The position numbers and the translations under genes were made by a program. Of a stretch of 64,000 nucleotides of DNA, positions 4,174 to 48,340 are shown piece after piece; within the stretch, counting starts at the first letter, position 1, and each line of letters begins with the position of its first letter. A model generated the notes under the pieces. It did not search any database. It saw nothing but the letters and a program-made list of their open reading frames with translations, and was not told the origin of the DNA. The DNA comes from Acidisarcina polymorpha (GTDB lineage: Bacteria; Acidobacteriota; Terriglobia; Terriglobales; Acidobacteriaceae). The DNA lies in the NCBI RefSeq assembly GCF_003330725.1, contig NZ_CP030840.1:2914001-2978000 (forward strand), in the 5' to 3' direction.

Positions 4174-5979
4174 ATGAATAGTGCCAAAGAAGAAGTATCC
4201 AGTCAGGCAATAGCCACCGAGTTGGAGCGGCTCTGCGAGAGCGCGACCTTTAGAAACTCCCCTCGCCTATGCCGCTTCCTGCGTTATACAGTTGAATCGG
4301 CGATGCGGGGCGAAGGCGAGAAGCTCAAGGAATATGTGATCGGGACGGACGTCTACGATCGTCGCCATCCGTATTATCCAAGCCAGGACTCGATCGTACG
4401 TACCGAAGCAAAGCGGCTCCGCAATAAACTCAAAGAATATTACGATACCGAGGGATTAGAGGACGAGGTCCTCATCTACTATCGCACCGGAAACTACCAG
4501 CCGATCTTTCGGCGGAGCGAACGTCGTTCAGACACGACCAAAATGCCAGCCGAAAAGACGGCGGCAGCCCCGAACGAAACGTCTCCGGGCGTCACCATTG
4601 CGGTTCTCCCTTTTAGGCATCAAAAAGGGGATAGTGAAGCCGCGGCTATCGCTGCCGGCATCACGGATGATCTCATCTTTCTCATTACCTCGACGGATGG
4701 GTGTCGCGTCATGGCCTCGCAATCTGTTGCTCTGGTACATTCGCGCACTTCAGACGTGGCGCTCTTGAGCAGCGTTCTCAACGTTGATCAGGTCATCACC
4801 GGCAGCGTTCGCAAAGATGCAACGCATGTTCGGGTTTCCGTAACAGGTGTTCATCCCTCCGGGCTTGAAACCTGGTCAGAAAGGTTCGACTTTACCACCA
4901 ACAAGAACGACCTTATGATTTTGGAAGAGCAGACCGCGTCGGCCATTATGGCACGAATTGGACCCCACGAATCTGTCTTGCGCCATATGCAGGCGAGAGT
5001 CCCGACAGTCTGTCTCTCAACCTTCCCTGAGATACTCAGCGCGGAAGCAGCGATGGATCAAGGTACATCTGCGTCGCTGCGGAGCGCAATCTTCAAGTTT
5101 AAGAACTTAGCTGCGCGCCAGCCTCAATCTGCGCGTATTCAATGTGGGATGACTCAGTGCTACTACTCTTTGGCTCTACTTGGAGAGAGATTAACACCAG
5201 AGGAATTGCAAGAAGCAAAGATCGCAGCCGTAAGGGCCCTGCAGCTCGATCCAGAAATGGGAGAAGCTCATGCTGCGATGGGTTGCTCTCACCTCCTGGA
5301 GCTCAACGGCGAGGGGGCAGAAGAAGCATTTCGACATGCCCTCACCTTGAGAGAAAGTCCGAACATCCGCCAAGCGTATGCCGACCAGCTAATGACCCTC
5401 GGTCGATTCGAAGATGCTGCGATCCAGCTTACAAATTCCCGTCGTGTGGATCCATTCTCCCATCGTCAGCGAGTTTCGACAGCGCGGTTGCGCTATTTGA
5501 CTTGGCATCCGAACGACGAACCCGATGTTCTTCGAGAAGAGATTCAGTACGGCCCTGCTCCTACGCAGGTGCTTCTTTTCGAGGCGGAACTGTTGCTTCG
5601 CAAGGGGAGGGAGGCCGATGCAGCTAATTTGGCTGACACGATCCTGCGGAACTCAGATCCAAGCTCCGCCATGCTGTCAGACTTAGCCGCAATCCTGGCC
5701 CTTGCGGGGTTAACAGACAAAGCTCGAGAACTGGTTGATCGTTTTCAGCTACTGAGCCAAGATGCCTTGGTGAGCAGTACGTATCAGGCTCGGCTTTGCA
5801 TGGCCCTCCGTGACCGGGAAGCCTGCCGCAGTTTTCTCAAAGTTGCTGTCGCTCAACAGGAGCCGCAACTTTGCTGGCTGGCAATTGACCCTAAACTCCA
5901 AGACCTTCGAGGCGATTCCATCATTAGCCACGCCAACCAAGTTTCGCGAGGGCCAGGCACCGGCTGGGCTAACAGTTAG
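4174..5979 (+). CDS. Regulatory protein with FlgO/TolB-like domain and TPR repeats
   Basis: 601 residues in three parts. Residues 1-115 form a domain widespread in Acidobacteriota (ATFRNSPRLCRFLRY, then KEYVIGTDVYDR and SIVRTEAKRLRNKLKEYY), probably a DNA- or protein-binding helical module. Residues about 140-270 (VTIAVLPFRHQKGDSEAAAI, GITDDLIFLI, VITGSVRKD) match the FlgO/TolB N-terminal-like domain found in adenylate-cyclase and TPR regulators. Residues about 320-480 hold TPR-like helices. No membrane segment is visible. It ends 39 bases before an EmrA-EmrB-TolC set on the same strand, so it is probably its regulator or first gene (inference). The same N-terminal domain recurs in the protein at 36799-38130, also next to a transport gene. 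Its last 11 bases are the palindrome CTAACAGTTAG. Confidence 0.75.
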   Translation: MNSAKEEVSSQAIATELERLCESATFRNSPRLCRFLRYTVESAMRGEGEKLKEYVIGTDVYDRRHPYYPSQDSIVRTEAKRLRNKLKEYYDTEGLEDEVLIYYRTGNYQPIFRRSERRSDTTKMPAEKTAAAPNETSPGVTIAVLPFRHQKGDSEAAAIAAGITDDLIFLITSTDGCRVMASQSVALVHSRTSDVALLSSVLNVDQVITGSVRKDATHVRVSVTGVHPSGLETWSERFDFTTNKNDLMILEEQTASAIMARIGPHESVLRHMQARVPTVCLSTFPEILSAEAAMDQGTSASLRSAIFKFKNLAARQPQSARIQCGMTQCYYSLALLGERLTPEELQEAKIAAVRALQLDPEMGEAHAAMGCSHLLELNGEGAEEAFRHALTLRESPNIRQAYADQLMTLGRFEDAAIQLTNSRRVDPFSHRQRVSTARLRYLTWHPNDEPDVLREEIQYGPAPTQVLLFEAELLLRKGREADAANLADTILRNSDPSSAMLSDLAAILALAGLTDKARELVDRFQLLSQDALVSSTYQARLCMALRDREACRSFLKVAVAQQEPQLCWLAIDPKLQDLRGDSIISHANQVSRGPGTGWANS

Positions 5980-36798: not shown

Positions 36799-38130
36799 TC
36801 ACCAAATCTGGCTGGCGATCACCTGTGGAGGACCCTGCTGGCCTTCCAGAATCTCGGTGGAGAGCACAATCTCGACGTTCTTCCCCATAGTGACCTTCGC
36901 CTGCGCCAGCCAGGTTGCCAGGTATTTGTCGTTCGTAAGGAATTCTGCTGCTGCCGCAGTACCACTTTTCCCAATGCCGGCCACGATCAGCACCTGCTGC
37001 TGGATTCGTGGGTCAAAAAGGCTCGCGACGATCGCATAATCGCGCGAGTCGCTCACCGCGCTCTGGCCATTATCAAAGCTCCAACGCTGATCAGGATGCT
37101 TGCTGTCGACGATAACGCCCAGGAGGGCTCTTGGATTTTCGAAGCGGTAGCGTAGGGTAGAGGTCAGGCGGAGCGTCCACACATTATCGAAGCCGCCAAT
37201 GAGAACAACCGGGCCCCGCTGTAGTTGTTCAAAGGTAGTCTCGGATGCCCCCTGTGTTTCAAAGCTGTGGTCGCGCCTAGTGAGCAGCCTGGTCAAGTGG
37301 CTATAGCTGACAATGTCACTGACCGGCACCATCTCGGAACGAATCATCGAAGACAGCATATTTTGCTTGTCTTCGGAACCGTAGGCCACGTGCAGCGCCG
37401 GTGAGAGATCGTTGCCGCTTGAATCGAGCGAGTGAACACCGATCACGATCAACGCCGGGCCATCGGCAGCCAGGATCGGCTTCCAGAAGTAATCAATTCC
37501 CTTTTCCCCCGGATAATCCGGCTGCTGGCGGAAGATAAAGCCCGCCCCGGCAATCAGTATTCCCAAAATCAAAATAGCCATCGCGGCGTGCAGGCTCAGA
37601 CTAGGCTTTTGAGTCAGGTGAGCCGGGAGAGAGTCAGAGGCATCCAAGGTCGGCTCATCGCTCGGCACCCCCGAAGAGGGATCCAACACCCGGTCGGAGA
37701 TTTCAGCGGGAGCATCTTCCACATCCGCCGGAAGCACCTCGGTGGGGCTCTCGGGCAGGAGAAATTGCGGTACGTAAGATCCGATCGGCAGTTCGATCCT
37801 CAGCTCATGCCGATGTCCGGCGGCTTGATAATACTGGGCAATGCGTTTTCGGATTTCCCCCGCCGTGACGCGCACCACTGGGTCGGCGCTCGTATCGTAG
37901 TCGTTCAGGCGTCCAAAAACTTCAATCCCCAAAGTTCGCTCTTTGAGCAGGTCAGTTCGCCCAGCCAGCGTATGTTCCACCGCAAACTTGAGCAGATTTG
38001 GATAGCGCTTACTGTTACGAAAATGAGGGCTGCCGATAATCCGCTCCAGCTGCTTAAGTACCTCGATTCGGTTCGGCTCCTCCGGTTGATGGTCGGCTTT
38101 CGATAATAGGGGCGCAGCAAGAGTCGCCAT
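36799..38130 (-). CDS. Membrane-anchored regulator sharing the N-terminal domain of the protein at 4174
   Basis: 443 residues. Residues 20-125 (LERIIGSPHFRNSKRYPNLL, LGIEVFGRLNDYDTSADPVV, RVTAGEIRKRIAQYY) are the same domain as at the start of the 4174-5979 protein. A linker leads to one membrane helix (about 185-205, AAMAILILGILIAGAGFIF). The outer domain (about 215-440) contains GPVVLIGGFDNVWTLRLTST and VAGIGKSGTAAAAEFLTN, a pattern seen in acidobacterial proteins next to TonB receptors. It is divergent from the TonB receptor gene, so it may sense a ligand outside and control that gene (inference). The stop codon touches an IS6 remnant, so the last residues could be altered. Confidence 0.75.
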   Translation of the reverse strand: MATLAAPLLSKADHQPEEPNRIEVLKQLERIIGSPHFRNSKRYPNLLKFAVEHTLAGRTDLLKERTLGIEVFGRLNDYDTSADPVVRVTAGEIRKRIAQYYQAAGHRHELRIELPIGSYVPQFLLPESPTEVLPADVEDAPAEISDRVLDPSSGVPSDEPTLDASDSLPAHLTQKPSLSLHAAMAILILGILIAGAGFIFRQQPDYPGEKGIDYFWKPILAADGPALIVIGVHSLDSSGNDLSPALHVAYGSEDKQNMLSSMIRSEMVPVSDIVSYSHLTRLLTRRDHSFETQGASETTFEQLQRGPVVLIGGFDNVWTLRLTSTLRYRFENPRALLGVIVDSKHPDQRWSFDNGQSAVSDSRDYAIVASLFDPRIQQQVLIVAGIGKSGTAAAAEFLTNDKYLATWLAQAKVTMGKNVEIVLSTEILEGQQGPPQVIASQIW

Positions 38131-38541
38131 GGGTTATAGGCTACCGATAGATTTGGGGCCTTGTGACCCTCCTTTAGGTGGAGGTTTCTTCAGGCCACCC
38201 GGAGAGATCTTCGCTCGATAGTTCGGATTCGGTTTCACTTGGCGTTCCTCACCCATTCTAAGCTTAGAGGTCGCGCGCGCCATATTGGTCTGGTGGGGTA
38301 CTATACGTGACCGGATACGAAGCATAAACCATATTAACCTTAATAATTTAGGACGATACCTCTCTATGCTACCGTATGCGTCTTGCCAGCATCGCAGCCT
38401 AACCCCAAGGATTGCCCGACTGTTCCCCTCACTCACCACCTTTAGTTGAGTGAAAGAGGCAGCCATGTACAAGCGAATCAATGAGAAGGCAAGTCTTGGC
38501 GTATATCACTCAATTGTTCTTTCTTTAGGAGGACCACCATC
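38131..38541. other. Divergent promoter region of regulator and TonB-receptor genes
   Basis: 411 bases upstream of both the membrane-anchored regulator (minus) and the receptor (plus). A strong AGGAGGA at 38527-38533 serves the receptor start. A 26-codon open frame fills the last 80 bases, listed separately. No clear operator was picked out. Confidence 0.5.
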
Positions 38542-38545
38542 ATGA
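38465..38545 (+). CDS. Possible 26-residue leader peptide overlapping the TonB-receptor start
   Basis: ATG 38465, preceded by AAAGAGG, opens a frame MYKRINEKASLGVYHSIVLS followed by LGGPPS and a TGA that overlaps the receptor's ATG (ATGA arrangement). The overlap would couple translation of the two frames. No relatives known; it may be chance, as the frame has to cross the receptor's ribosome site. Confidence 0.3.
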   Translation: MYKRINEKASLGVYHSIVLSLGGPPS

Positions 38546-41500
38546 TGTATTTCATTAGACGCGCGAACTCGCGTCCAGGAGACGATCGGCCCCGTCGGTC
38601 ATTCTTCGCCCGTGCACTCAGCTTCATGCTGCTGGCATTTTCGTTCACCTTGTCCGCATCGGCTCAACTCACCACCGCAGATATTCTCGGTACCGTATCT
38701 GACGCCTCTGGGGCGGTCATTCCCGGCGCCGACGTAAAACTGACGAATCTGGGGACTAACGAGACCCATAGCGCCGTGACAAATGACACCGGCGACTATG
38801 TCTTCACACTTCTTCCCGTTGGTCACTATTCAATCTCCGTGAAGGCAAAGGGTTTCCAGGAGTCGATTGCCAAGGACCTCTCCGTAGAAGCTGGTGATCG
38901 CGCCCGCGCCGATATCCACGTGCAACTCGGGTCGGAGTCAACCGTCGTCGAAGTCACAGCCCAGACCCCCCTTCTCCAGGCCGACAGCGCTACCGTCAGC
39001 TCGACGGTAACTGCAAAAGCGGTTCAGGATCTTCCCTTGAATGGCCGCAACTTCGTCCAGTTGGTCCAACTGGTTCCCGGTGCGAATGAGGGACCTGGCA
39101 ATGGATTGAGCAGCGGCGGACGTCCTGACGACCGTCGGACCAATGCGGCCGGTATCTCGGTGAACGGGCAGGACGACACCCTCAATAATTGGGTGGTCGA
39201 CGGAATCGACGACAACGAACGGATCATCGGCTCGATCGGCGTCAAGCCGAACGTCGAAGGCATCCAGGAAATCACCGTTCAGACCAACAGCTACGCAGCC
39301 GAGGCTGGCCGCACGGCAGGAGGGGTCATCAATATCGTCACCCGCTCTGGGACGAACCAGTTCCATGGCTCGGTCTACGAATATTTCCGCAACGACATCT
39401 TCGACGGCCGCAACTACTTCCAGTCCACCGGCAGAAAGCCCGAACTGCGGCAAAATCAGTACGGCGCAAGCATCGGCGGACCCATCTTCCGCGATCGCAC
39501 CTTCTTCTACTTCGATTTCGAAGGATTGCGCCAGGTGTCGGGCGTGACCGACACCGGCACCGTCCCCACCATGGGGGAATATGACGCCATCAACAGTATC
39601 GGCGGAAGCACGCCGCAAAGCCTTCTGTCAGTAGCAAACGGCACTGCTGGCCTGCCCATCGATCCAATCGCGCTGAACTACCTCAAGCTCTTCCCAGCAC
39701 CGACCAATGGCAATCTTACCAACAACTTCACCATCAGCCCCAACAAGACCCAGAACGGCTTTACATATGACGGGCGCGTCGACCACCGCTTTAATGACAA
39801 GAACCTGTTCTTTGGTCGCTACGCGTATAACAAGGTTGATACCTTCACGCCTCCCAACTTCGGCATCGTGAATGGACTCGAGATCAGCGGCGGTCGCTAC
39901 AACTTCGATGGTCCTGCGACAGATGTTGCCCAGCAATACGCCTTTGGCTACACTCACTTCTTCAATCAGAGCCTCGTGCTCGATCTGCGGGCCGCATACA
40001 CCCGCATCAACAACCTCTCTTTGCCCCTGAACTATGGGCTCAACGCTGATCAAACCATCGGCTTCCCGGCGGGAATGACCTCCTTCAGCCCCTTTGCCAA
40101 CTCCCTTACTCCGATCTCTATTGGGCCGTTCGGCGATATCGGCGATGGCGCATACGTGCCGCTGCAGGACATCGATGGTACCTTCCAGTACGCTGGTACG
40201 GTCAGCTGGACCAAGGGAAACCACAACTTCAAGTTCGGCGCCAGCCTGATCCGCCGCCAGGCGCGGAACGTTCAAAGCGCCTCGGCAGTCGGAGCCTACA
40301 GCTTCAACTTGCCCACTGACAGCAACGCCGATCAGCTCACGCAGCAGAACAACCAGCTCGCCTCGACTTTGGTTGGAGCTTACAACAGCGAGACTCGCAA
40401 CTTTAACCTTTCCCCGCCCGACTATCGCAGCTGGGAACCGAGCGGATTCGCCCAGGATAGCTGGAAGATAAACCCGAAGTTGACCTTGCTCTACGGTCTA
40501 CGCTATGACGTCTTCACGCCATTCACCGAAGCTCATGACCACATCTCCAACTTCGACTTTCCCGAAGCTCTCGGACTCACCGCTGCCAACATCGGCGATG
40601 CGTTGAAGGTCGCTGGAGTGAACGGAGTCGATAAGCAGGTCAACATCCCAACGGATTATTCCAATGTCGCCCCACGGCTTGGATTCTCATACTCTCTTAT
40701 GCCCGGCACCATCCTTCGTGGCGGCTACGGACTGAGCTTCTTCCCCGGCAACTACACCTCCAACGCCGACCTGAAGAATGCTCCGTTCACCTCGATCTTC
40801 AGCCCGTCCTGCCAGTCCGACCTCGCAGTTGCCATTGAAGAAGGTCAAAACGGCGGCGCGCCTCTCCCGGGTCAAAATCCGGCCTGCTCGACTATCGGCG
40901 CGCCCGGTGTCCTGAACGAAGGCCTGCCAACGCCTACCGCGCCAAATCTCACGGCGCTGAATACCGTCACCGGATTGAGCTTTGTGGCAGAGGCCCCGCA
41001 TTTCAAGTCGGCCCTCATTCAACAGTTCAATCTGCAGGTGGAGCAGCAGATCGGTCCCAACGTCTTCACCATTGGCTATGTGGGCAACATCGGTCAGCAC
41101 CTGCCTGAATCCATCAACAACATCAACCAGGCTTTGCCCTACAACCCTCTCGCCCCACTTGGCAGTGCAGCAAATCCAGTCGGCGGAGCCCGCCCTCTGA
41201 ATGCGCAGCTCCCGAATCTAGGCGGAGTGAGCTACATCAACAGCGGCGGCATCTCCAACTACAGCGCCTTGCAGACCTCCTTCCAGCGCCGTTTCACCAA
41301 GGGCCTGGCCTTCGACGCCAACTACACCTGGGGTAAGGCGCTCAGCGACATCACTGGCTTCTCCCAACAGGGCAGCAACCAGGGTTGGAGCAACGCCAAT
41401 CCTCTCAACATCCGTGGCATCGAATATGGTGTTGCGGAAAACGACATCCAGAACCGCTTTGCCATCGGTCTGAATTACGAAATTCAGTATGGCAGAGAGT

Positions 41501-42024
41501 TCACCGGCATCAAGAAAACCGCCTTCTCCGGATGGCAGATCAACCTGATCTCCGCCTGGCAAAGCGGCAAACCCTTCACCGTCATCAACAGCGGCGCCGG
41601 GGTGGACAATCCTGAAGGCTTGGGCTACAGCAATCGCGCCACCCCGCAAAACAGCGGCGGTAACGATCGCCCTGACCAGCTTGGCGACGCGCGACTCGGC
41701 AACCGCAGCATCAACCACTGGTTCGACACCACCAAATTCGCCCCGCAGCCTCTGGGGACGATCGGTACCGCGCAGCGCAACTCGCTCTTCGGACCCGAGT
41801 ATCGCCACGTGGATCTCTCCCTGTTCAAAACTTTTCCCGTCACGGAGCGTGTGAACCTGCAGTTCCGAGTCGAAAGCTTCAACATTGCCAACACGCCGAA
41901 CTTCTATTTGCAGAACGGCCAGCCAGGCGACTCCTTCGGAAACGCAGGTTTCGGAACGATCTCCCAGACCGACCCGAACTACACACCGCGTGAATTTCAG
42001 TTCGCGCTGAAGGCGCAATTCTGA
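38542..42024 (+). CDS. Oar-like TonB-dependent outer-membrane receptor with carboxypeptidase-regulatory-like domain
   Basis: 1160 residues. The signal peptide (RALSFMLLAFSFTLSASAQ, about 24-42) is followed by a carboxypeptidase-regulatory-like beta-sandwich (ILGTVSDASGAVIPGADVKL, about 48-130), the plug (about 140-260, LPLNGRNFVQLVQLVPGANE, GGVINIVTRSGTNQFHGSVY) and a large beta-barrel ending in REFQFALKAQF with the terminal Phe expected for outer-membrane insertion. These receptors take up large ligands such as glycans or peptides and are a hallmark of Acidobacteriota. AGGAGGA lies eight bases before the first of two adjacent ATGs. A divergent membrane regulator lies upstream; a secreted lectin-propeller and an asparaginase-like gene follow. 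Confidence 0.93.
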   Translation: MMYFIRRANSRPGDDRPRRSFFARALSFMLLAFSFTLSASAQLTTADILGTVSDASGAVIPGADVKLTNLGTNETHSAVTNDTGDYVFTLLPVGHYSISVKAKGFQESIAKDLSVEAGDRARADIHVQLGSESTVVEVTAQTPLLQADSATVSSTVTAKAVQDLPLNGRNFVQLVQLVPGANEGPGNGLSSGGRPDDRRTNAAGISVNGQDDTLNNWVVDGIDDNERIIGSIGVKPNVEGIQEITVQTNSYAAEAGRTAGGVINIVTRSGTNQFHGSVYEYFRNDIFDGRNYFQSTGRKPELRQNQYGASIGGPIFRDRTFFYFDFEGLRQVSGVTDTGTVPTMGEYDAINSIGGSTPQSLLSVANGTAGLPIDPIALNYLKLFPAPTNGNLTNNFTISPNKTQNGFTYDGRVDHRFNDKNLFFGRYAYNKVDTFTPPNFGIVNGLEISGGRYNFDGPATDVAQQYAFGYTHFFNQSLVLDLRAAYTRINNLSLPLNYGLNADQTIGFPAGMTSFSPFANSLTPISIGPFGDIGDGAYVPLQDIDGTFQYAGTVSWTKGNHNFKFGASLIRRQARNVQSASAVGAYSFNLPTDSNADQLTQQNNQLASTLVGAYNSETRNFNLSPPDYRSWEPSGFAQDSWKINPKLTLLYGLRYDVFTPFTEAHDHISNFDFPEALGLTAANIGDALKVAGVNGVDKQVNIPTDYSNVAPRLGFSYSLMPGTILRGGYGLSFFPGNYTSNADLKNAPFTSIFSPSCQSDLAVAIEEGQNGGAPLPGQNPACSTIGAPGVLNEGLPTPTAPNLTALNTVTGLSFVAEAPHFKSALIQQFNLQVEQQIGPNVFTIGYVGNIGQHLPESINNINQALPYNPLAPLGSAANPVGGARPLNAQLPNLGGVSYINSGGISNYSALQTSFQRRFTKGLAFDANYTWGKALSDITGFSQQGSNQGWSNANPLNIRGIEYGVAENDIQNRFAIGLNYEIQYGREFTGIKKTAFSGWQINLISAWQSGKPFTVINSGAGVDNPEGLGYSNRATPQNSGGNDRPDQLGDARLGNRSINHWFDTTKFAPQPLGTIGTAQRNSLFGPEYRHVDLSLFKTFPVTERVNLQFRVESFNIANTPNFYLQNGQPGDSFGNAGFGTISQTDPNYTPREFQFALKAQF

Positions 42025-42500
42025 CATTGAAATGACGGGCTCAGCGGCGAGTTGAAGTTAGGTCGCCGGATGAGCCCGCACAGGCGTCCGATCGAGGTAG
42101 CTTTGGCAACCTCATTTCTTGGGTTCTGTCGCAATAAGGATGTATGAACGGTGAAAGGCCGATAGGATCGGGTTGCTTATGCTTCCAAGGAGTAGAACTG
42201 CACTCAAATGGCGGAATTTTGCTCTTCGGCCTCATTTACTGCACTTAAAGACCGGAATTCGAAATGGCTTATGTACTTTAATCCCGAACGAAAGAACGTG
42301 CAGCGGAACGGTGAAGAGCGTAAACGACTGCGTTTGTGATGTCGCCGATGTCAACAGTGTGAAGATTTCCGTGGCCAACAAGGAGTAAGAAAGAAGATGT
42401 ACCATTCACAGGGCGGATCTAGACACCACCTGAACCGCCGTATGTGGCTGCCATTCTGGTTGTCAAGCATATGCAGGTAACGAAAACCATTGGGGGCTCT
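42025..42500. other. Intergenic with IS6-type terminal fragment (42122-42201)
   Basis: Bases 42122-42201, starting GGTTCTGTCGCAATAAGG and ending AGTAGAACTGC, repeat the IS6-derived end seen at 36718-36797 (inverted) and 46293-46374. The rest is presumably the leader of the propeller gene. No other gene is seen. Confidence 0.7.
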
Positions 42501-44471
42501 ATGAGTGGCTTCATCAAATCTACCTGTCAAAATGTCGTCATAACGATTCATGTCTTGATGGTTTTGGCTTGTTTCGGCAATATGGGCCACGCTCAGAACA
42601 GCGTGTTGACACAGCATAATGACAATCTTCGCGACGGCGTGAATGCCACGGAGAGCGTCCTGACCCCCTCGAATGTCAATGCCAATCAGTTTGGACTGCT
42701 GTTCAAGCTAGGGGTAGATGACCAGGTGTACGCACAGCCGCTGGTGGACGACAGCGTTAGCGTTAATGGCGCCACGCACAGCGTGGTCTACATCGCGACG
42801 ACCAACAACAGCGTATACGCCTTCGATGCCAATACGGGCGCTCCTTACTGGCATGTAAACCTGGGCACTGCCTTGAAGGTCAGCGATATTGGGTTTGGCT
42901 GTACGGATGTTCTGAACACGACAGGCATCATGAGTACACCGGTGATCAATCCGAGCAACAACACGATGTACGTGGTGGCCGAGACCTACATCAATGGTAC
43001 GGCCGCGCATAAGTTGCATGCACTTAGCCTGTCCACCGGTGCCGAACAGTCGGGTAGCCCAGTACAGATTCAGGCCAGCGGTTTTAGCTCCGAGGACGCG
43101 CTGCAGCGTCCTGGACTTTTGCTGGCCAACGGAAACATCTACTTCTCATTTGCCTCTCATTGCGATCACGGGTCATGGAAAGGCTTTACTTTTGCTTACA
43201 ACGCGGCCTCTCTGGCACAAGTGGGCGTCTTCGACCCGTCGCCCGACGACAACGGCGCTGGCATTTGGCAATCTGGCAATGGCGATGCGGCGGATTCTGC
43301 CGGATACGTCTACTGGGTGACGGGGAACGGCACCTGGGATGGTGTCAACGATTTTAGCGAGAGCATGATGAAGGGAACACCGAACCTCGGCCTTGCGGAT
43401 TGGTATACGCCCACCAACCCAGCCGGCCTCGACAGCGGGGACATCGACTTGACCTCTTCCGGCCCGCTGCTGCTCGCCAACACGAGCCTAATGATCGCTG
43501 GAGGCAAGCAGGGCGTGCTAAACCTGGTGAATACGGGGAATATGGGCCATCTTGGAGGAGCGGTACAAACCTGGTCGGCCAACAACTCCCACCTTCACTC
43601 GCTGGTGTACTTCAATTCCAATCTCTATGTTTGGGGTCAGGCTGATTATCTGAAAGTTTTTCACTTTAACGGCTCTACATTCGGCATCACTCCAACGTAT
43701 ACCGGGCCGGTTCAAGCGATCGGGCACCCCGGAGGTACACTGTCCATCTCCGCGAATGGCACGTCGAACGGCATCTTGTGGGCGGCAACCAATATGGCCG
43801 GGCCGAGCAGCCCAGACGCGTGGCACTCAACGCAGCCTGGCATCCTCTACGCCTACAGCCTGCCGAACATGACGCAACTATGGACCAACCAGCAGAATGC
43901 GACACGGGATACCTGCAACAACTACGCAAAGTTCACACCGCCAACCATCGTCAATGGCAAAGTTTACCTGGCCAGCTTCGGGACCGCACAGACGAGCAGC
44001 GGACAAGTGTGTGTTTATGGCGCTATCGCTTCTACTAGTCTGATCGCGGACGGCACCTACGTCATCACCAGCGTTCACAGCGGACAAGCCATTGATGATC
44101 CCGCATCTTCGAAGACCAATGGCACGATCATGACCCAGTACACGGTCAATAACGGCACGAACCAACAGTGGACGCTGCACAACTTGGGCAACAATGTCGT
44201 CACTCTGACCAACGTAGCGAGCGGTGAGTTGCTGGATGTCGTGGGGAACTCGACAGCCAATAGCGCCCTTGTCGATCAATGGCCCGCGAACGGCCAAACT
44301 AACCAACAGTGGAATGTCGTTTCCGTGGGTGGAGGCTCCTACGAATTGACTAGCGTCCACAGCGGCGAGGCCCTGGACGTGGATGGTGGGGGAACCACCA
44401 TGGGCGAGAAACTTGACCAATTTCCGTACCAGGGTAAGCCGTGGCAACAGTGGAAGTTCACCTCCAAGTAG
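42501..44471 (+). CDS. Secreted beta-propeller protein with C-terminal ricin-type lectin domain
   Basis: 656 residues from ATG 42501, chosen because it gives a standard signal peptide (VVITIHVLMVLACFGNMGHA); the frame is open upstream to 42444. Residues about 45-510 form a PQQ-like propeller, with VYIATTNNSVYAFDANTGAP and later blades such as GILYAYSLPNMTQLW. Residues about 520-656 are a ricin-type beta-trefoil with three QxW repeats: NQQWTL, NQQWNV and QQWKF. The lectin part should bind sugars such as galactose or GlcNAc. Being secreted and downstream of a TonB receptor, it may present or process a glycan ligand. The PQQ-binding residues cannot be judged. Confidence 0.85.
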   Translation: MSGFIKSTCQNVVITIHVLMVLACFGNMGHAQNSVLTQHNDNLRDGVNATESVLTPSNVNANQFGLLFKLGVDDQVYAQPLVDDSVSVNGATHSVVYIATTNNSVYAFDANTGAPYWHVNLGTALKVSDIGFGCTDVLNTTGIMSTPVINPSNNTMYVVAETYINGTAAHKLHALSLSTGAEQSGSPVQIQASGFSSEDALQRPGLLLANGNIYFSFASHCDHGSWKGFTFAYNAASLAQVGVFDPSPDDNGAGIWQSGNGDAADSAGYVYWVTGNGTWDGVNDFSESMMKGTPNLGLADWYTPTNPAGLDSGDIDLTSSGPLLLANTSLMIAGGKQGVLNLVNTGNMGHLGGAVQTWSANNSHLHSLVYFNSNLYVWGQADYLKVFHFNGSTFGITPTYTGPVQAIGHPGGTLSISANGTSNGILWAATNMAGPSSPDAWHSTQPGILYAYSLPNMTQLWTNQQNATRDTCNNYAKFTPPTIVNGKVYLASFGTAQTSSGQVCVYGAIASTSLIADGTYVITSVHSGQAIDDPASSKTNGTIMTQYTVNNGTNQQWTLHNLGNNVVTLTNVASGELLDVVGNSTANSALVDQWPANGQTNQQWNVVSVGGGSYELTSVHSGEALDVDGGGTTMGEKLDQFPYQGKPWQQWKFTSK

Positions 44472-44538
44472 ACCCAATGACGCGGGTCGGCAAGTCCGTC
44501 GATCCGCGTTGTAAATTCTTTTTCCAGGGAAATCGTTA

Positions 44539-45828
44539 ATGAGCTTTAGCCGCAGGGAATTCTTGACTTCCGCGGTCCTGTCGTCGGCTGCGCTTTCGCT
44601 TGAAGCACAAGGAATCCCCGAAACGGCGACTCCCATGCAGGACCATGCAGGACACGCTCACCCCAAACCTGAACGGCCTAAGGTGGCCCGCGTTCCTGCA
44701 GTGCTCTCGCGAATCACCGGTACTGCGGGATTAGATGCCGCTTATAGTTGTTTAAAGGCCGGTCGGGATACCCTTCAAGCCGCGCTCCAGATCACGCAGG
44801 CGCAGGAAGATTACCAGGACGATGCTACGGCGGGACTAGGCGGTCTGCCCAATGCGAGCGGCGAGGTGCAACTCGATGCCTGCTGCTTTCATGGGCCGAC
44901 ACGTCGAACCGCCGCCGTCGGCGCGGTGCAGGGCATCAAGAACGCTTCTCTGCTAGCCCATACGCTTATGGAACGCACTGCCTACCCGATGCTGGTCGGC
45001 GAAGATGCTCAACGGTTTGCCCTAACGCGAAGTTTCGTGCAGCAGGAGCTGCTCACCCGGCGCACACGAGCGGTTTGGGAGCTTTGGAAGCAGCTCCAAT
45101 TCGTCTTGAGACCGCTCGGTGCAGGCATCTATGACCCGGCTTGGCCAGAGCCGGACAGAGAGACGCATTTTCTTCCCGCGTCACAAGATGAGTTGAACCT
45201 CTTGGTGCGCAAGTTCGAACCGCTCGCAGTCAAGGCTGGAATCGGGCCGCAATGGACCTGGCGTGCGGTATATGACGCACTATTTCCCGCCGCCAATCCT
45301 CTCTACGTCTCTACGGTAAACGAGAAGCAGGAGATCTCCTGCGCGGCTACGACGAGCGGGCTGCCATGGAGAATGCCGGGGGCGACAAGCGACATCGCCA
45401 ACCCTGGAACTGGCTGCTATCTCGATCCGGAAGTCGGATCGGCCGGTGCGAGTGGCAACGCCGCTGCCAATATCAAGATAGGAGGTGCGCGACTAATTGT
45501 GGAAAACATGCGACAAGGCATGACCCCGGAGGAGGCTGGGATGGATGCTTTACGCAAACTCGTGCAATGGTATCGGAATGACATAGCGGCCTTACGCTTT
45601 GTAGAGGTGCTTTACTATGTCCAGCGCAAAGATGGAGCTTATAGCTGTGTTTCGCTTTGGCACGGAGACCGCACGGGGCACGCGCAGCAGTTTGCCATCC
45701 ATGACGGTGTGCGACGCACCGAGGAGTGTCTGTTCTTACTAGAAGGCAATCCCCCGAATGGCCTTTCGACCTCCCTCCATACATCAATTCGTTTCGCCAG
45801 AGCGGCCTTTGAAAGTGGGGCAGCATAA
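44539..45828 (+). CDS. Aspartylglucosaminidase/isoaspartyl-peptidase-like protein lacking the catalytic Thr motif
   Basis: 429 residues with a Tat-type signal (SRREFLTSAVLSSAALS). The alpha-subunit region is clear: GGLPNASGEVQLDACCFHGP, RRTAAVGAVQGIKNASLLAH and MERTAYPMLVGEDAQRFAL. The beta-subunit region is clear from ATTSGLPWRMPGATSDIANP and VGSAGASGNAAANIKIGGAR. In active N-terminal-nucleophile enzymes of this family the junction carries HDT(I/V)(G/S)M; the aligned residues here are NPLYVS (253-258), so the Thr nucleophile and self-cleavage site are missing. The frame is otherwise intact. It may be a secreted pseudoenzyme that binds glycosylated asparagine, or may have a changed activity. 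It follows the propeller-lectin gene by 67 bases. Confidence 0.75.
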   Translation: MSFSRREFLTSAVLSSAALSLEAQGIPETATPMQDHAGHAHPKPERPKVARVPAVLSRITGTAGLDAAYSCLKAGRDTLQAALQITQAQEDYQDDATAGLGGLPNASGEVQLDACCFHGPTRRTAAVGAVQGIKNASLLAHTLMERTAYPMLVGEDAQRFALTRSFVQQELLTRRTRAVWELWKQLQFVLRPLGAGIYDPAWPEPDRETHFLPASQDELNLLVRKFEPLAVKAGIGPQWTWRAVYDALFPAANPLYVSTVNEKQEISCAATTSGLPWRMPGATSDIANPGTGCYLDPEVGSAGASGNAAANIKIGGARLIVENMRQGMTPEEAGMDALRKLVQWYRNDIAALRFVEVLYYVQRKDGAYSCVSLWHGDRTGHAQQFAIHDGVRRTEECLFLLEGNPPNGLSTSLHTSIRFARAAFESGAA

Positions 45829-46707: not shown

Positions 46708-47367
46708 TTAGCGGGCGTGAGGACTTCGGGCACGGCCCAATGAAAGGCACATGCTCCACACAAAGCTTAGCTGCCTCAGCAATTTGCCGCTGCCATATTC
46801 CTGCAAGGATTGGGCGAGGCCCGTATCTGGGCTAAAGCTCCAGACTCGTCGCGAAGTCCCGTTCGGCGCGATTACCGTTGCACTAGTATTAATCTGACCA
46901 TTGCCGCCAGCGGCACGCTGAAATGCATGGGTGAGGCCAGTCGTATCCTCGGAAGAAGCGCGCAGCGAACGTGTCACAACTTCGCGAACGGCATTGCCAT
47001 TGGCGAAAGTGGCTGTCTTATATTGCCAAGCCAGGGCAGCACCGAAAGGAAGTTGCACTTCCTCCAATTCTGAATAGGAGTTGTAAGCAAAGCTGTGCTG
47101 GTGCCCGGCTCCGTCTGTGATGCTGGCGAGGGACTGCACGGGTTTTGGTTCAGCAGCATCGCTGAAGGGTGACTCAATCTGCAACTCAAAATAGGTAAAG
47201 CTATAGTTCTCTTTAGCATTTACTCCACTAATGACAGCGAGTAATCGCGGTGAGTTGCCCGCTTCATACTGAAAGCGATAGGTGGCGCCTTCGATCGAAG
47301 AGTAGACGCTCCGTGCGTCGCTGATGCTGAAAAAGACCTCGTGAGTTGAATCGCGCGGGCTGCCCAT
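46708..47367 (-). pseudogene. RHS/YD-repeat protein internal fragment
   Basis: 219 codons open on the minus strand. Segments such as SLASITDGAGHQHSFAYNSY, SELEEVQLPFGAALAWQYKT and RRVWSFSPDTGLAQSLQEYG have the YD-repeat character of RHS proteins. There is no signal sequence, core motif or toxin tip, and both ends run into unrelated DNA (IS6 remnant on one side, primase relic on the other). Full RHS proteins exceed 1000 residues, so this is an internal piece. Confidence 0.65.
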
Positions 47368-47371
47368 TACT

Positions 47372-48340
47372 TCACGCTCGTATCCATTGTTGTTGGGACC
47401 TTACGAAAAATGCGGGTGATATCTCGTGCGCCAGGTCTACAGACTCTTCAATGGCGTTGCTGGTTGGAAGAACGCGGACATTTACTTGTTTCTCTCGCGC
47501 AAGTCGCAGTCCTGCGACGATGCAAGCTCCCAGCTTCGCGAATTTAGGTCGGTTCATGTCGTCGATAAGGATGTGGTGCTTGTTGTCCGAAAGTGGTGTG
47601 TAGTAAATATTTTCGCCTCGACGCTGGAGACGCTGCATCTCCGGGATGCGCTGGGCGATCTCCTCGGGCGTGAAGCCCTTGGTTACGCCGGTCTGCTTGT
47701 CCTTATCGAGAATGAAAATCTTGTTCTGGCCGTCGGGCAGCATCTTGATCGAGGTGACGCGGTAACGCTCGGCCTGCACGGCGTCATGGTATTTCTCGAA
47801 TTGTTGGAGTTCGAGAGAGGCAGCGGTGCCTTGGAATTTGTGATTTGGGACTGCTTGGCTGGGCGTCTCAGCTGGCGCGGGCTGGGGGTGTCTTGGTGAT
47901 TCCCGGACTGGGGTTTCTTGGTTCCTGACCGCTGGGCTATCAGAGATGTAGAGATTGACCTCGCGGCCTTTTCGGGAGAGCACGGCGATCTCCCCGTCGC
48001 CCGGCGCGGTGTCGTGAGTGAAGAGTACTCGCTCCGGAGCTCCGGCCTTAACGCTCTCGATTGCGTAGCCATGTTCGATGTGGCGGGCCTGGTCGGCGGT
48101 GAGCTTCGCGAGCGAACCTTTGTCGAGCCGTACTTCGAGATTGCTCGGGTCGATCGCCGTAACCGTCCCCAGTTCGCCTCTGCGGATGCCAACTCGGCGT
48201 CCGTGCGGGTGAATTGGACGCGGTCGCCTTTGGCGATTTCGCGCTGCTCTTGACGAAAGACGGCGCTCTCGGCGGTCATCGTTCTCGAAAGATGCGGATC
48301 AGGATTTCGCGTGATTCGGGACAACCTTGCTGGCGTCAAC
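47372..48340 (-). pseudogene. MobF-type relaxase end fused to RepB-like primase domain, frameshifted
   Basis: Read leftward, the 5' part gives VFRQEQREIAKGDRVQFTRT and, after a frame change, ELGTVTAIDPSNLEVRLDKG and HIEHGYAIESVKAG, matching the C-terminal region of TraI/TrwC-type conjugative relaxases. After a linker with ETPVRESPRHPQPAPAETPS comes YHDAVQAERYRVTSIKMLPD, KGFTPEEIAQRIPEMQRLQR and RGENIYYTPLSDNKHHILID, the start of a RepB-family primase domain, which then breaks off. The relaxase catalytic and helicase parts are missing. It is direct evidence of a former conjugative or mobilisable element. Confidence 0.75.

What the first reader, a model, noticed from the sequence alone, without database searches (positions are those of the whole stretch)
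36799..45828. Candidate secreted-glycan locus: sensor, TonB receptor, lectin-propeller and aspartylglucosaminidase-like protein
The three plus-strand genes encode an outer-membrane receptor, a secreted propeller with a ricin lectin (three QxW repeats) and a Tat-exported homologue of the enzyme that cleaves GlcNAc-Asn links. A divergent membrane-anchored protein with a regulatory domain precedes them. Together they suggest recognition and uptake of glycoprotein or glycan ligands in a combination I do not know as a described system.
Basis: inference. Interest (0 to 1): 0.6.

Follow-up and report, generated by a model that had tools for sequence, protein, structure and literature searches.

The report
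Lectin paired with a dead amidase
In a few soil bacteria, a secreted sugar-binding (lectin) protein sits beside a relative of a glycoprotein-cleaving enzyme whose key catalytic residues have been replaced, next to an outer-membrane uptake receptor, suggesting that an old enzyme was reused as a non-cutting partner in binding or uptake.

Summary
All four genes exist at the stated coordinates, but they are not one conserved four-gene locus, and the last protein should not be an active amidase of the known type. The aspartylglucosaminidase-like protein (44539-45828) has Pro for the catalytic, self-cleaving Thr and Ala for the substrate-binding Arg. Both residues are kept in 147 of 147 other homologues read. 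The loss is stable: five genomes share it. Four form one clade (100/100); the fifth is 83% identical to one of them. Frames are open, and pN/pS is 0.24-0.40 in the four tested. In 5 of 5 the gene directly follows a full-length propeller plus ricin-lectin gene, and a TonB-receptor homologue lies within 1.1 kb, against 1 of 50 control loci. The receptor itself varies: the window's receptor and regulator have their best matches elsewhere in G217; two loci share another receptor in rearranged order. Best reading: a lectin plus pseudoenzyme pair, probably spread by transfer, working with a TonB receptor in ligand binding or uptake, without cleaving GlcNAc-Asn. The ligand is unknown. Genome: Acidisarcina polymorpha SBC82 (replicon lengths match).

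The parts
44539..45828 (+). Tat-type exported glycosylasparaginase homologue without the catalytic Thr and substrate Arg (429 aa, P0001)
   Evidence: PF01112 6.1e-31; PDB glycosylasparaginases, best 4.9e-31; active-site losses
45298..45300 (+). codon of P254, at the place of the catalytic and self-cleaving Thr
   Evidence: Thr in 147 of 147 other homologues read, P/P/A/P/A in the five; the Thr of a canonical relative aligns here, and the profile puts the first beta-chain residue of solved enzymes at that Thr
45382..45399 (+). codons 282-287 (ATSDIA) in place of R-x-G-D-S-P; substrate Arg lost
   Evidence: Arg282 and Gly284 147 of 147 others; Ser286 145 of 147 others
44635..44661 (+). Met/His-rich stretch (residues 33-41) between export signal and domain
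   Evidence: His counts 3,5,3,7,2 in the linker of the five dead proteins versus 0 in 43 of 62 Tat-type relatives
42444..44471 (+). secreted beta-propeller (residues about 53-531) plus ricin-type lectin; a likelier start is the ATG at 42501 (by eye)
   Evidence: homologues at full length and this similarity only beside the dead AGA in the genomes searched
44049..44462 (+). ricin B-type beta-trefoil lectin domain with three QQW repeats
   Evidence: PF14200/PF00652, QQW positions, ThreeFoil and ricin-type modules of glycoside hydrolases among the nearest PDB chains
44477..44512 (+). hairpin in the 67-base gap between lectin and AGA-like gene, followed by a T-rich run
   Evidence: terminator-like sites no more common than in shuffles there; fold z = -3.27; weaker in the relatives
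38542..42024 (+). TonB-receptor-like outer-membrane protein (PF25183 barrel, carboxypeptidase-regulatory-like domain); neighbour, not a fixed member
36799..38130 (-). divergent protein of a family that often lies divergently beside TonB receptors; not found at the four other pair loci

Best explanation
42444-45828 is a two-gene unit, probably spread by horizontal transfer: a Sec-secreted beta-propeller with a ricin-type lectin, and a Tat-exported glycosylasparaginase fold that has lost the known catalysis and was kept for another job. The pair sits next to a TonB receptor. Most likely working: the lectin-propeller holds a glycan-bearing ligand at the cell surface, the TonB receptor carries a ligand or its fragment across the outer membrane, and the pseudoenzyme, uncleaved and non-hydrolytic, binds (rather than cuts) a ligand or the partner protein in the periplasm or outside. 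Shown: pairing, loss of active-site residues, selection on both genes, receptor adjacency. Inferred: export routes, transfer, binding role, uptake, ligand.
For: Thr254 and Arg282 equivalents in 147 of 147 others and 0 of 5 here; in the related EmAGA, T152A leaves only precursor and 3.14% activity, and R180A 3.87% (PMC13204146 Table 3, passages read). Dead clade of four 100/100, nested among relatives with intact sites; fifth member 83% identical to G067's. Lectin-propeller clade of four 100/100. In 398 family genomes the lectin-propeller matches at E 2.2e-238 or better in 4 genomes, the next at 2.1e-159 (two candidates scored per genome); they are the four that hold the dead AGA. pN/pS 0.24-0.43 for both genes in the four genomes tested. 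TonB-receptor homologue within 1.1 kb in 5 of 5 versus 1 of 50 controls (Fisher p 1.7e-6, optimistic for the reasons given against); one receptor (68% identical) shared by G271 and G779 but upstream in one and downstream in the other.
Against: No expression, binding or localisation data. Receptors differ among loci, so a dedicated three-part machine is not shown; TonB receptors are abundant (123 matches in this genome); the 1.1 kb limit was chosen after seeing the data, the receptor queries came from the pair loci themselves, and the controls are best hits, not random loci. Within 4 kb, 7 of 25 propeller loci without AGA also have a receptor. Identity of the two genes over the ten genome pairs correlates only weakly (Spearman 0.43, p 0.21). 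A strong hairpin lies between the two genes in the window, so co-transcription is not certain. The structure model was poor (mean pLDDT 39.8) and was not used.
Confidence: 0.45

Rival explanations
1. The AGA-like protein is still an enzyme, with a new nucleophile or another chemistry, acting on what the lectin holds.
For: A new set of residues is invariant in the first four dead proteins and rare or absent in 67 relatives (T240-W241-R242, D246, P276, R278, S284, A287, A308), and can be read in the fifth; D285 and G306 of the old site are kept. Such re-coding fits a new function.
Against: No candidate nucleophile at the old place (P or A); Arg lost; T152A and R180A variants of EmAGA are nearly inactive.
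Confidence: 0.2
2. The pseudoenzyme is mainly a metal- or haem-linked part: its His/Met-rich N-terminal segment binds metal, and the pair serves TonB-dependent metal or haem capture.
For: His enrichment (5 versus 62 rows, Mann-Whitney p 1.8e-5; sequences are related, so p is optimistic); the receptor shared by G271 and G779, tested in G271, weakly resembles haem/haemoglobin receptors (TIGR01785 E 3.6e-9, 35.6 bits against a cut-off of 316.85).
Against: The segment is short and variable; the sister sequence L074 has some His/Met as well; the window receptor is of another type.
Confidence: 0.12
3. Ordinary adhesion or matrix proteins: the lectin-propeller is a surface adhesin, the dead AGA a chaperone-like or structural partner, and receptor adjacency is incidental.
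For: TonB receptors are very abundant; 7 of 25 propeller loci without AGA also have one within 4 kb; the organism lives in cellulose-based chambers (title and start of abstract of PMC9693552; that paper's text held none of lectin, proteom, transcriptom or asparaginase).
Against: Receptor adjacency 5 of 5, one receptor shared by two rearranged loci.
Confidence: 0.2
4. One reading: a locus that recognises and cleaves glycoprotein-derived GlcNAc-Asn with an active aspartylglucosaminidase.
For: Fold family and lectin are right.
Against: Catalytic residues gone in all five; four-gene order not conserved.
Confidence: 0.03

Closest known systems
Glycosylasparaginase / aspartylglucosaminidase (PF01112; Elizabethkingia EmAGA, human AGA)
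   Same: Sequence profile over both chains, export signal, Asp of the substrate site and 16 of 26 family-invariant positions kept.
   Different: Thr nucleophile/self-cleavage site, substrate Arg and the G-D-S motif replaced; His/Met-rich N-terminus; paired with a lectin-propeller.
Secreted AGA-like venom proteins of parasitoid wasps (PMC5524358, passages read)
   Same: A secreted AGA homologue recruited outside its usual setting.
   Different: Those keep Thr and the W/R/D substrate residues and are active.
L. casei alf-2 cluster with glycosylasparaginase AsnA2 (PMC6960285, passages read)
   Same: AGA homologue in a gene cluster with a transporter for a glycan-amino acid.
   Different: AsnA2 is intracellular, self-processing and active; no lectin or TonB receptor is named in the passages I saw.
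TonB-receptor glycan loci (SusC/SusD type; recalled)
   Same: TonB receptor beside an exported glycan-binding protein.
   Different: No SusD-like family among the neighbour proteins scanned (G779's neighbours were not scanned); receptors vary between loci; a dead amidase fold is a member.

Membership tests
Glycosylasparaginase (PF01112, EC 3.5.1.26) | Ntn-type sequence profile over alpha and beta parts | tested here: met
   PF01112 108 bits against cut-off 27; a profile of 16 rows including this protein matches solved enzymes at 2.9e-96
Glycosylasparaginase (PF01112, EC 3.5.1.26) | Thr nucleophile / self-cleavage site | tested here: not met
   P254; 147 of 147 others Thr
Glycosylasparaginase (PF01112, EC 3.5.1.26) | substrate-binding Arg | tested here: not met
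   A282; 147 of 147 others Arg
Glycosylasparaginase (PF01112, EC 3.5.1.26) | substrate-binding Asp | tested here: met
   D285 in 5 of 5 and 147 of 147
Glycosylasparaginase (PF01112, EC 3.5.1.26) | self-cleavage and hydrolysis of GlcNAc-Asn | not testable with these tools
   needs protein
Ricin B-type lectin | trefoil domain with three QxW repeats | tested here: met
   Pfam matches in the window and three relatives; three QxW in the lectin part of these four, one of them QEW in G217
Ricin B-type lectin | sugar binding | not testable with these tools
   needs glycan array
SusC/SusD-type TonB glycan locus | TonB receptor next to the binding protein | tested here: met
   within 1.1 kb in 5 of 5
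SusC/SusD-type TonB glycan locus | SusD-like lipoprotein | tested here: not met
   no such Pfam match among 7 window and 10 relative proteins scanned; not every neighbour was scanned, none in G779
   0 of 4 other pair loci have the regulator; their receptors are 27-29% identical to the window's or of another type; in G217 the best matches of both lie far away

The most novel reading that the evidence does not exclude
A new kind of TonB-coupled capture module in which a catalytically dead, His/Met-rich, Tat-exported amidase fold serves as the periplasmic ligand- or metal-binding protein and a propeller-lectin as the surface catcher, moving between genomes as a pair and joining whatever TonB receptor is at hand.
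Probability: 0.22. Interest if true: 0.72.

Novelty: new variant of a known kind. Interest (0 to 1): 0.5.

Why it matters
A family match alone would name this gene an aspartylglucosaminidase or asparaginase (PF01112), which is probably wrong. A pseudoenzyme clade in the glycosylasparaginase family with a fixed gene partner gives a direct handle on what the fold does without catalysis and on how Acidobacteriota, with 45 to 128 TonB-receptor matches in the four genomes searched, match receptors to ligands. In the held open-access library I found no paper with both glycosylasparaginase and pseudoenzyme (0) or glycosylasparaginase and TonB-dependent (0). Searches on aspartylglucosaminidase/inactive homolog (171 papers, 8 listed), on Acidobacteriota/TonB/ricin/propeller (1) and on Ntn-hydrolase/pseudoenzyme (13, 10 listed) showed none on this in the listings. 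Other wordings and subscription papers were not covered.

Tried and rejected
Four-gene conservation: rejected. Canonical AGA neighbourhoods as a source of linkage: 25 fetched loci (L074-L098) held no regulator, propeller or lectin match by tblastn at 1e-6, one (L092) had receptor matches; by the later count 1 of 25 had a TonB receptor within 4 kb. Pseudogene: rejected for the pair (open frames in 5 genomes; pN/pS below 0.45 in the four tested). Sequencing error: rejected (five genomes agree). Intergenic hairpin as a conserved element: z -3.27, -2.43, -1.56, -0.02 in four loci, so not conserved in strength. AlphaFold model of the AGA-like protein from 7 rows: mean pLDDT 39.8, not used and not fold-searched. 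Sigma-70 promoter scan: none found against 4.7 expected in shuffles. Phylum (396 genomes) and order (397) samples with the dead-clade profile: one more genome, G779, scored with the dead clade (1.4e-228; next best 1.5e-152); the draws overlap, few candidates per genome were scored, and not every match was read. Canonical AGA was searched for in 4 of the 5 dead-clade genomes and not found; G779 was not tested, and G779 is not in the two trees. One search translated minus-strand loci on the wrong strand and was replaced; the search step failed on a gapped file and the step was repeated. Rows dropped before counts: L073 (fragment), three duplicate rows; L069 and L071 left out of the structure alignment because of N/X. 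A search on receptor and winged-helix pairs in Acidobacteria gave one paper (passages of PMC3174227 read), not on this pairing.
Full report
The genome. The window lies at 2,914,001-2,978,000 of a 7,112,011-base contig. That length, and a further contig of 108,812 bases, equal those printed for the chromosome and one plasmid of Acidisarcina polymorpha SBC82 (PMC6252331, passages read). It is an acidobacterium from tundra soil.

The genes. The plus-strand three are a TonB-receptor-like barrel (PF25183), a secreted protein with a propeller region and a ricin-type lectin with three QQW triplets, and a protein of the asparaginase_2/glycosylasparaginase family with a twin-arginine start. The minus-strand gene has no Pfam or NCBIfam match. 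Among the best solved relatives of the lectin part are ThreeFoil and ricin-type modules of glycoside hydrolases.

The enzyme site is gone. Aligned with homologues, the window protein has Pro where the N-terminal Thr nucleophile should be, Ala for the substrate Arg, and Ser-Asp-Ile-Ala for Gly-Asp-Ser-Pro. A profile search of solved structures places the first residue of the enzyme's beta chain at that Thr. After reading 80 further family members on purpose, the counts are: Thr254 147 of 147 others and 0 of 5 here; Arg282 147 of 147 and 0 of 5; Gly284 147 of 147 and 0 of 5; Ser286 145 of 147 and 0 of 5; Asp285 kept in all 152. The 147 include this genome's two distant paralogues and three Verrucomicrobiota proteins. 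In the family search 166 of 398 genomes matched; not all of those were read. In EmAGA, T152A leaves only precursor and 3.14% activity, and R180A 3.87% (PMC13204146 Table 3, passages). The two losses together make hydrolysis by the known mechanism very unlikely. The acidobacterial relatives shown also lack the Trp of the substrate site (by eye), so even they may not cut GlcNAc-Asn.

The loss is shared and kept. Four proteins (this genome, G217, G067, G271) form a clade with 100/100 support on a stem of 0.93 changes per column, nested in the family's Tat-type enzymes beside the intact-looking copies of G029 and G117 (98/83). A fifth, in G779, was found later; it is 83% identical to that of G067 and shows the same replacements. 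Eight positions that are invariant in 67 of 67 other rows are changed in all five, while 16 of the 26 invariant positions are kept. pN/pS between the first four is 0.24-0.40. So this is a maintained pseudoenzyme or re-purposed protein, not decay. The four genomes tested hold no canonical Tat-type copy. In the genus of G217, at E up to 1e-60, 2 of 19 genomes have the dead form, 2 the canonical form and 15 neither, and the dead copies of that genus (G217, G271) are not each other's nearest. The spread is patchy, which suggests transfer; differential loss is not excluded.

The pair. In all five genomes the dead gene follows a full-length propeller-lectin gene on the same strand (57-62% identical to the window's over 626-665 residues in three relatives; 62% over 643 in G779). 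The gap is 67, 67, 84 and 78 bases in the first four. Among 398 family genomes four have a lectin-propeller match at E 2.2e-238 or better, and they are the four with the dead AGA; the next best is 2.1e-159 (two candidates scored per genome). Three other genomes (G259, G181, G164) have propellers with lectin domains from another branch and no AGA match in the stretch fetched; in G259 and G181 distant relatives of the regulator (23-24%) and receptor (29%) lie beside them. The lectin-propeller tree puts the first four of the pair together (100/100). Pairwise identities of the two genes over the ten genome pairs correlate only weakly (0.43, p 0.21), which tells against strict co-inheritance or reflects the narrow range.

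The receptor. The best match of the window receptor in G217 (75% identical) is at 1.51 Mb, while the pair is at 3.46 Mb and the regulator's best match (52%) at 0.39 Mb. So regulator, receptor and pair are separable. Yet a TonB-receptor homologue lies within 1.1 kb of the pair in 5 of 5 loci, against 1 of 25 propeller loci without AGA and 0 of 25 canonical AGA loci; within 4 kb the figures are 5 of 5, 7 of 25 and 1 of 25 (Fisher p 1.7e-6 for 5/5 against 1/50, 0.0056 and 4.2e-5 for the two 4-kb comparisons). Distances are between match edges. G271 and G779 share one receptor (68% identical), upstream of the pair in one and directly downstream in the other; the G271 copy weakly resembles haem receptors. 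Cautions: the distance limit was set after seeing the data, the receptor queries were taken from pair loci, the control loci are best hits and not random, some controls have short flanks, and two hold more than one propeller.

Other features. The stretch between the export signal and the domain is His-rich in the five (3, 5, 3, 7, 2 His; 43 of 62 relatives have none). A stable hairpin with a T-rich tail lies between the two genes in the window; it may lower expression of the second gene or end part of the transcripts.

Interpretation. The safest statement is that annotation as an aspartylglucosaminidase is probably wrong for this clade, and that the protein is a partner of the lectin-propeller. 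The most likely use is binding in a TonB-linked capture route; adhesion, metal handling and a new chemistry remain open.

Noticed in passing
36799-38130 (-) and relatives in G000 and G217: This protein family (11 matches in G000, 14 in G217) often lies divergently 0.25-1.1 kb (match edges) from a TonB receptor: at least 6 of 11 matches in G000 and 4 of 14 in G217 by comparing the listed coordinates (the receptor list was cut, so these are minima; two of the 14 lie in one frame). It may be a receptor-pairing regulator family without a Pfam entry.
   Followed up: partly
4174-5979 (+): Another member of that family at its N-terminus (match 4189-4584) with a weak TPR match, followed by HlyD, MFS and outer-membrane efflux genes.
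   Followed up: no
46708-48339 (-): Short frames downstream of the pair, partly overlapping, one with a RepB-primase match (47372-47983) and one that looks like an RHS/YD-repeat piece by eye (no Pfam match); possibly remains of a mobile element 1-2.5 kb from the pair.
   Followed up: partly
G000, 19 matches to the propeller: The genome holds many paralogues of the propeller, several in a row with long C-terminal extensions (L106); none of the four own stretches read with them (L103, L106, L107, L108) holds an AGA match.
   Followed up: partly
L152 and L153 (G259, G181): Propeller-lectin genes of another branch beside distant regulator and receptor relatives, without AGA: a possible related arrangement.
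   Followed up: partly
44477-44512: Strong hairpin between the paired genes (z -3.27), weaker or absent in relatives.
   Followed up: yes
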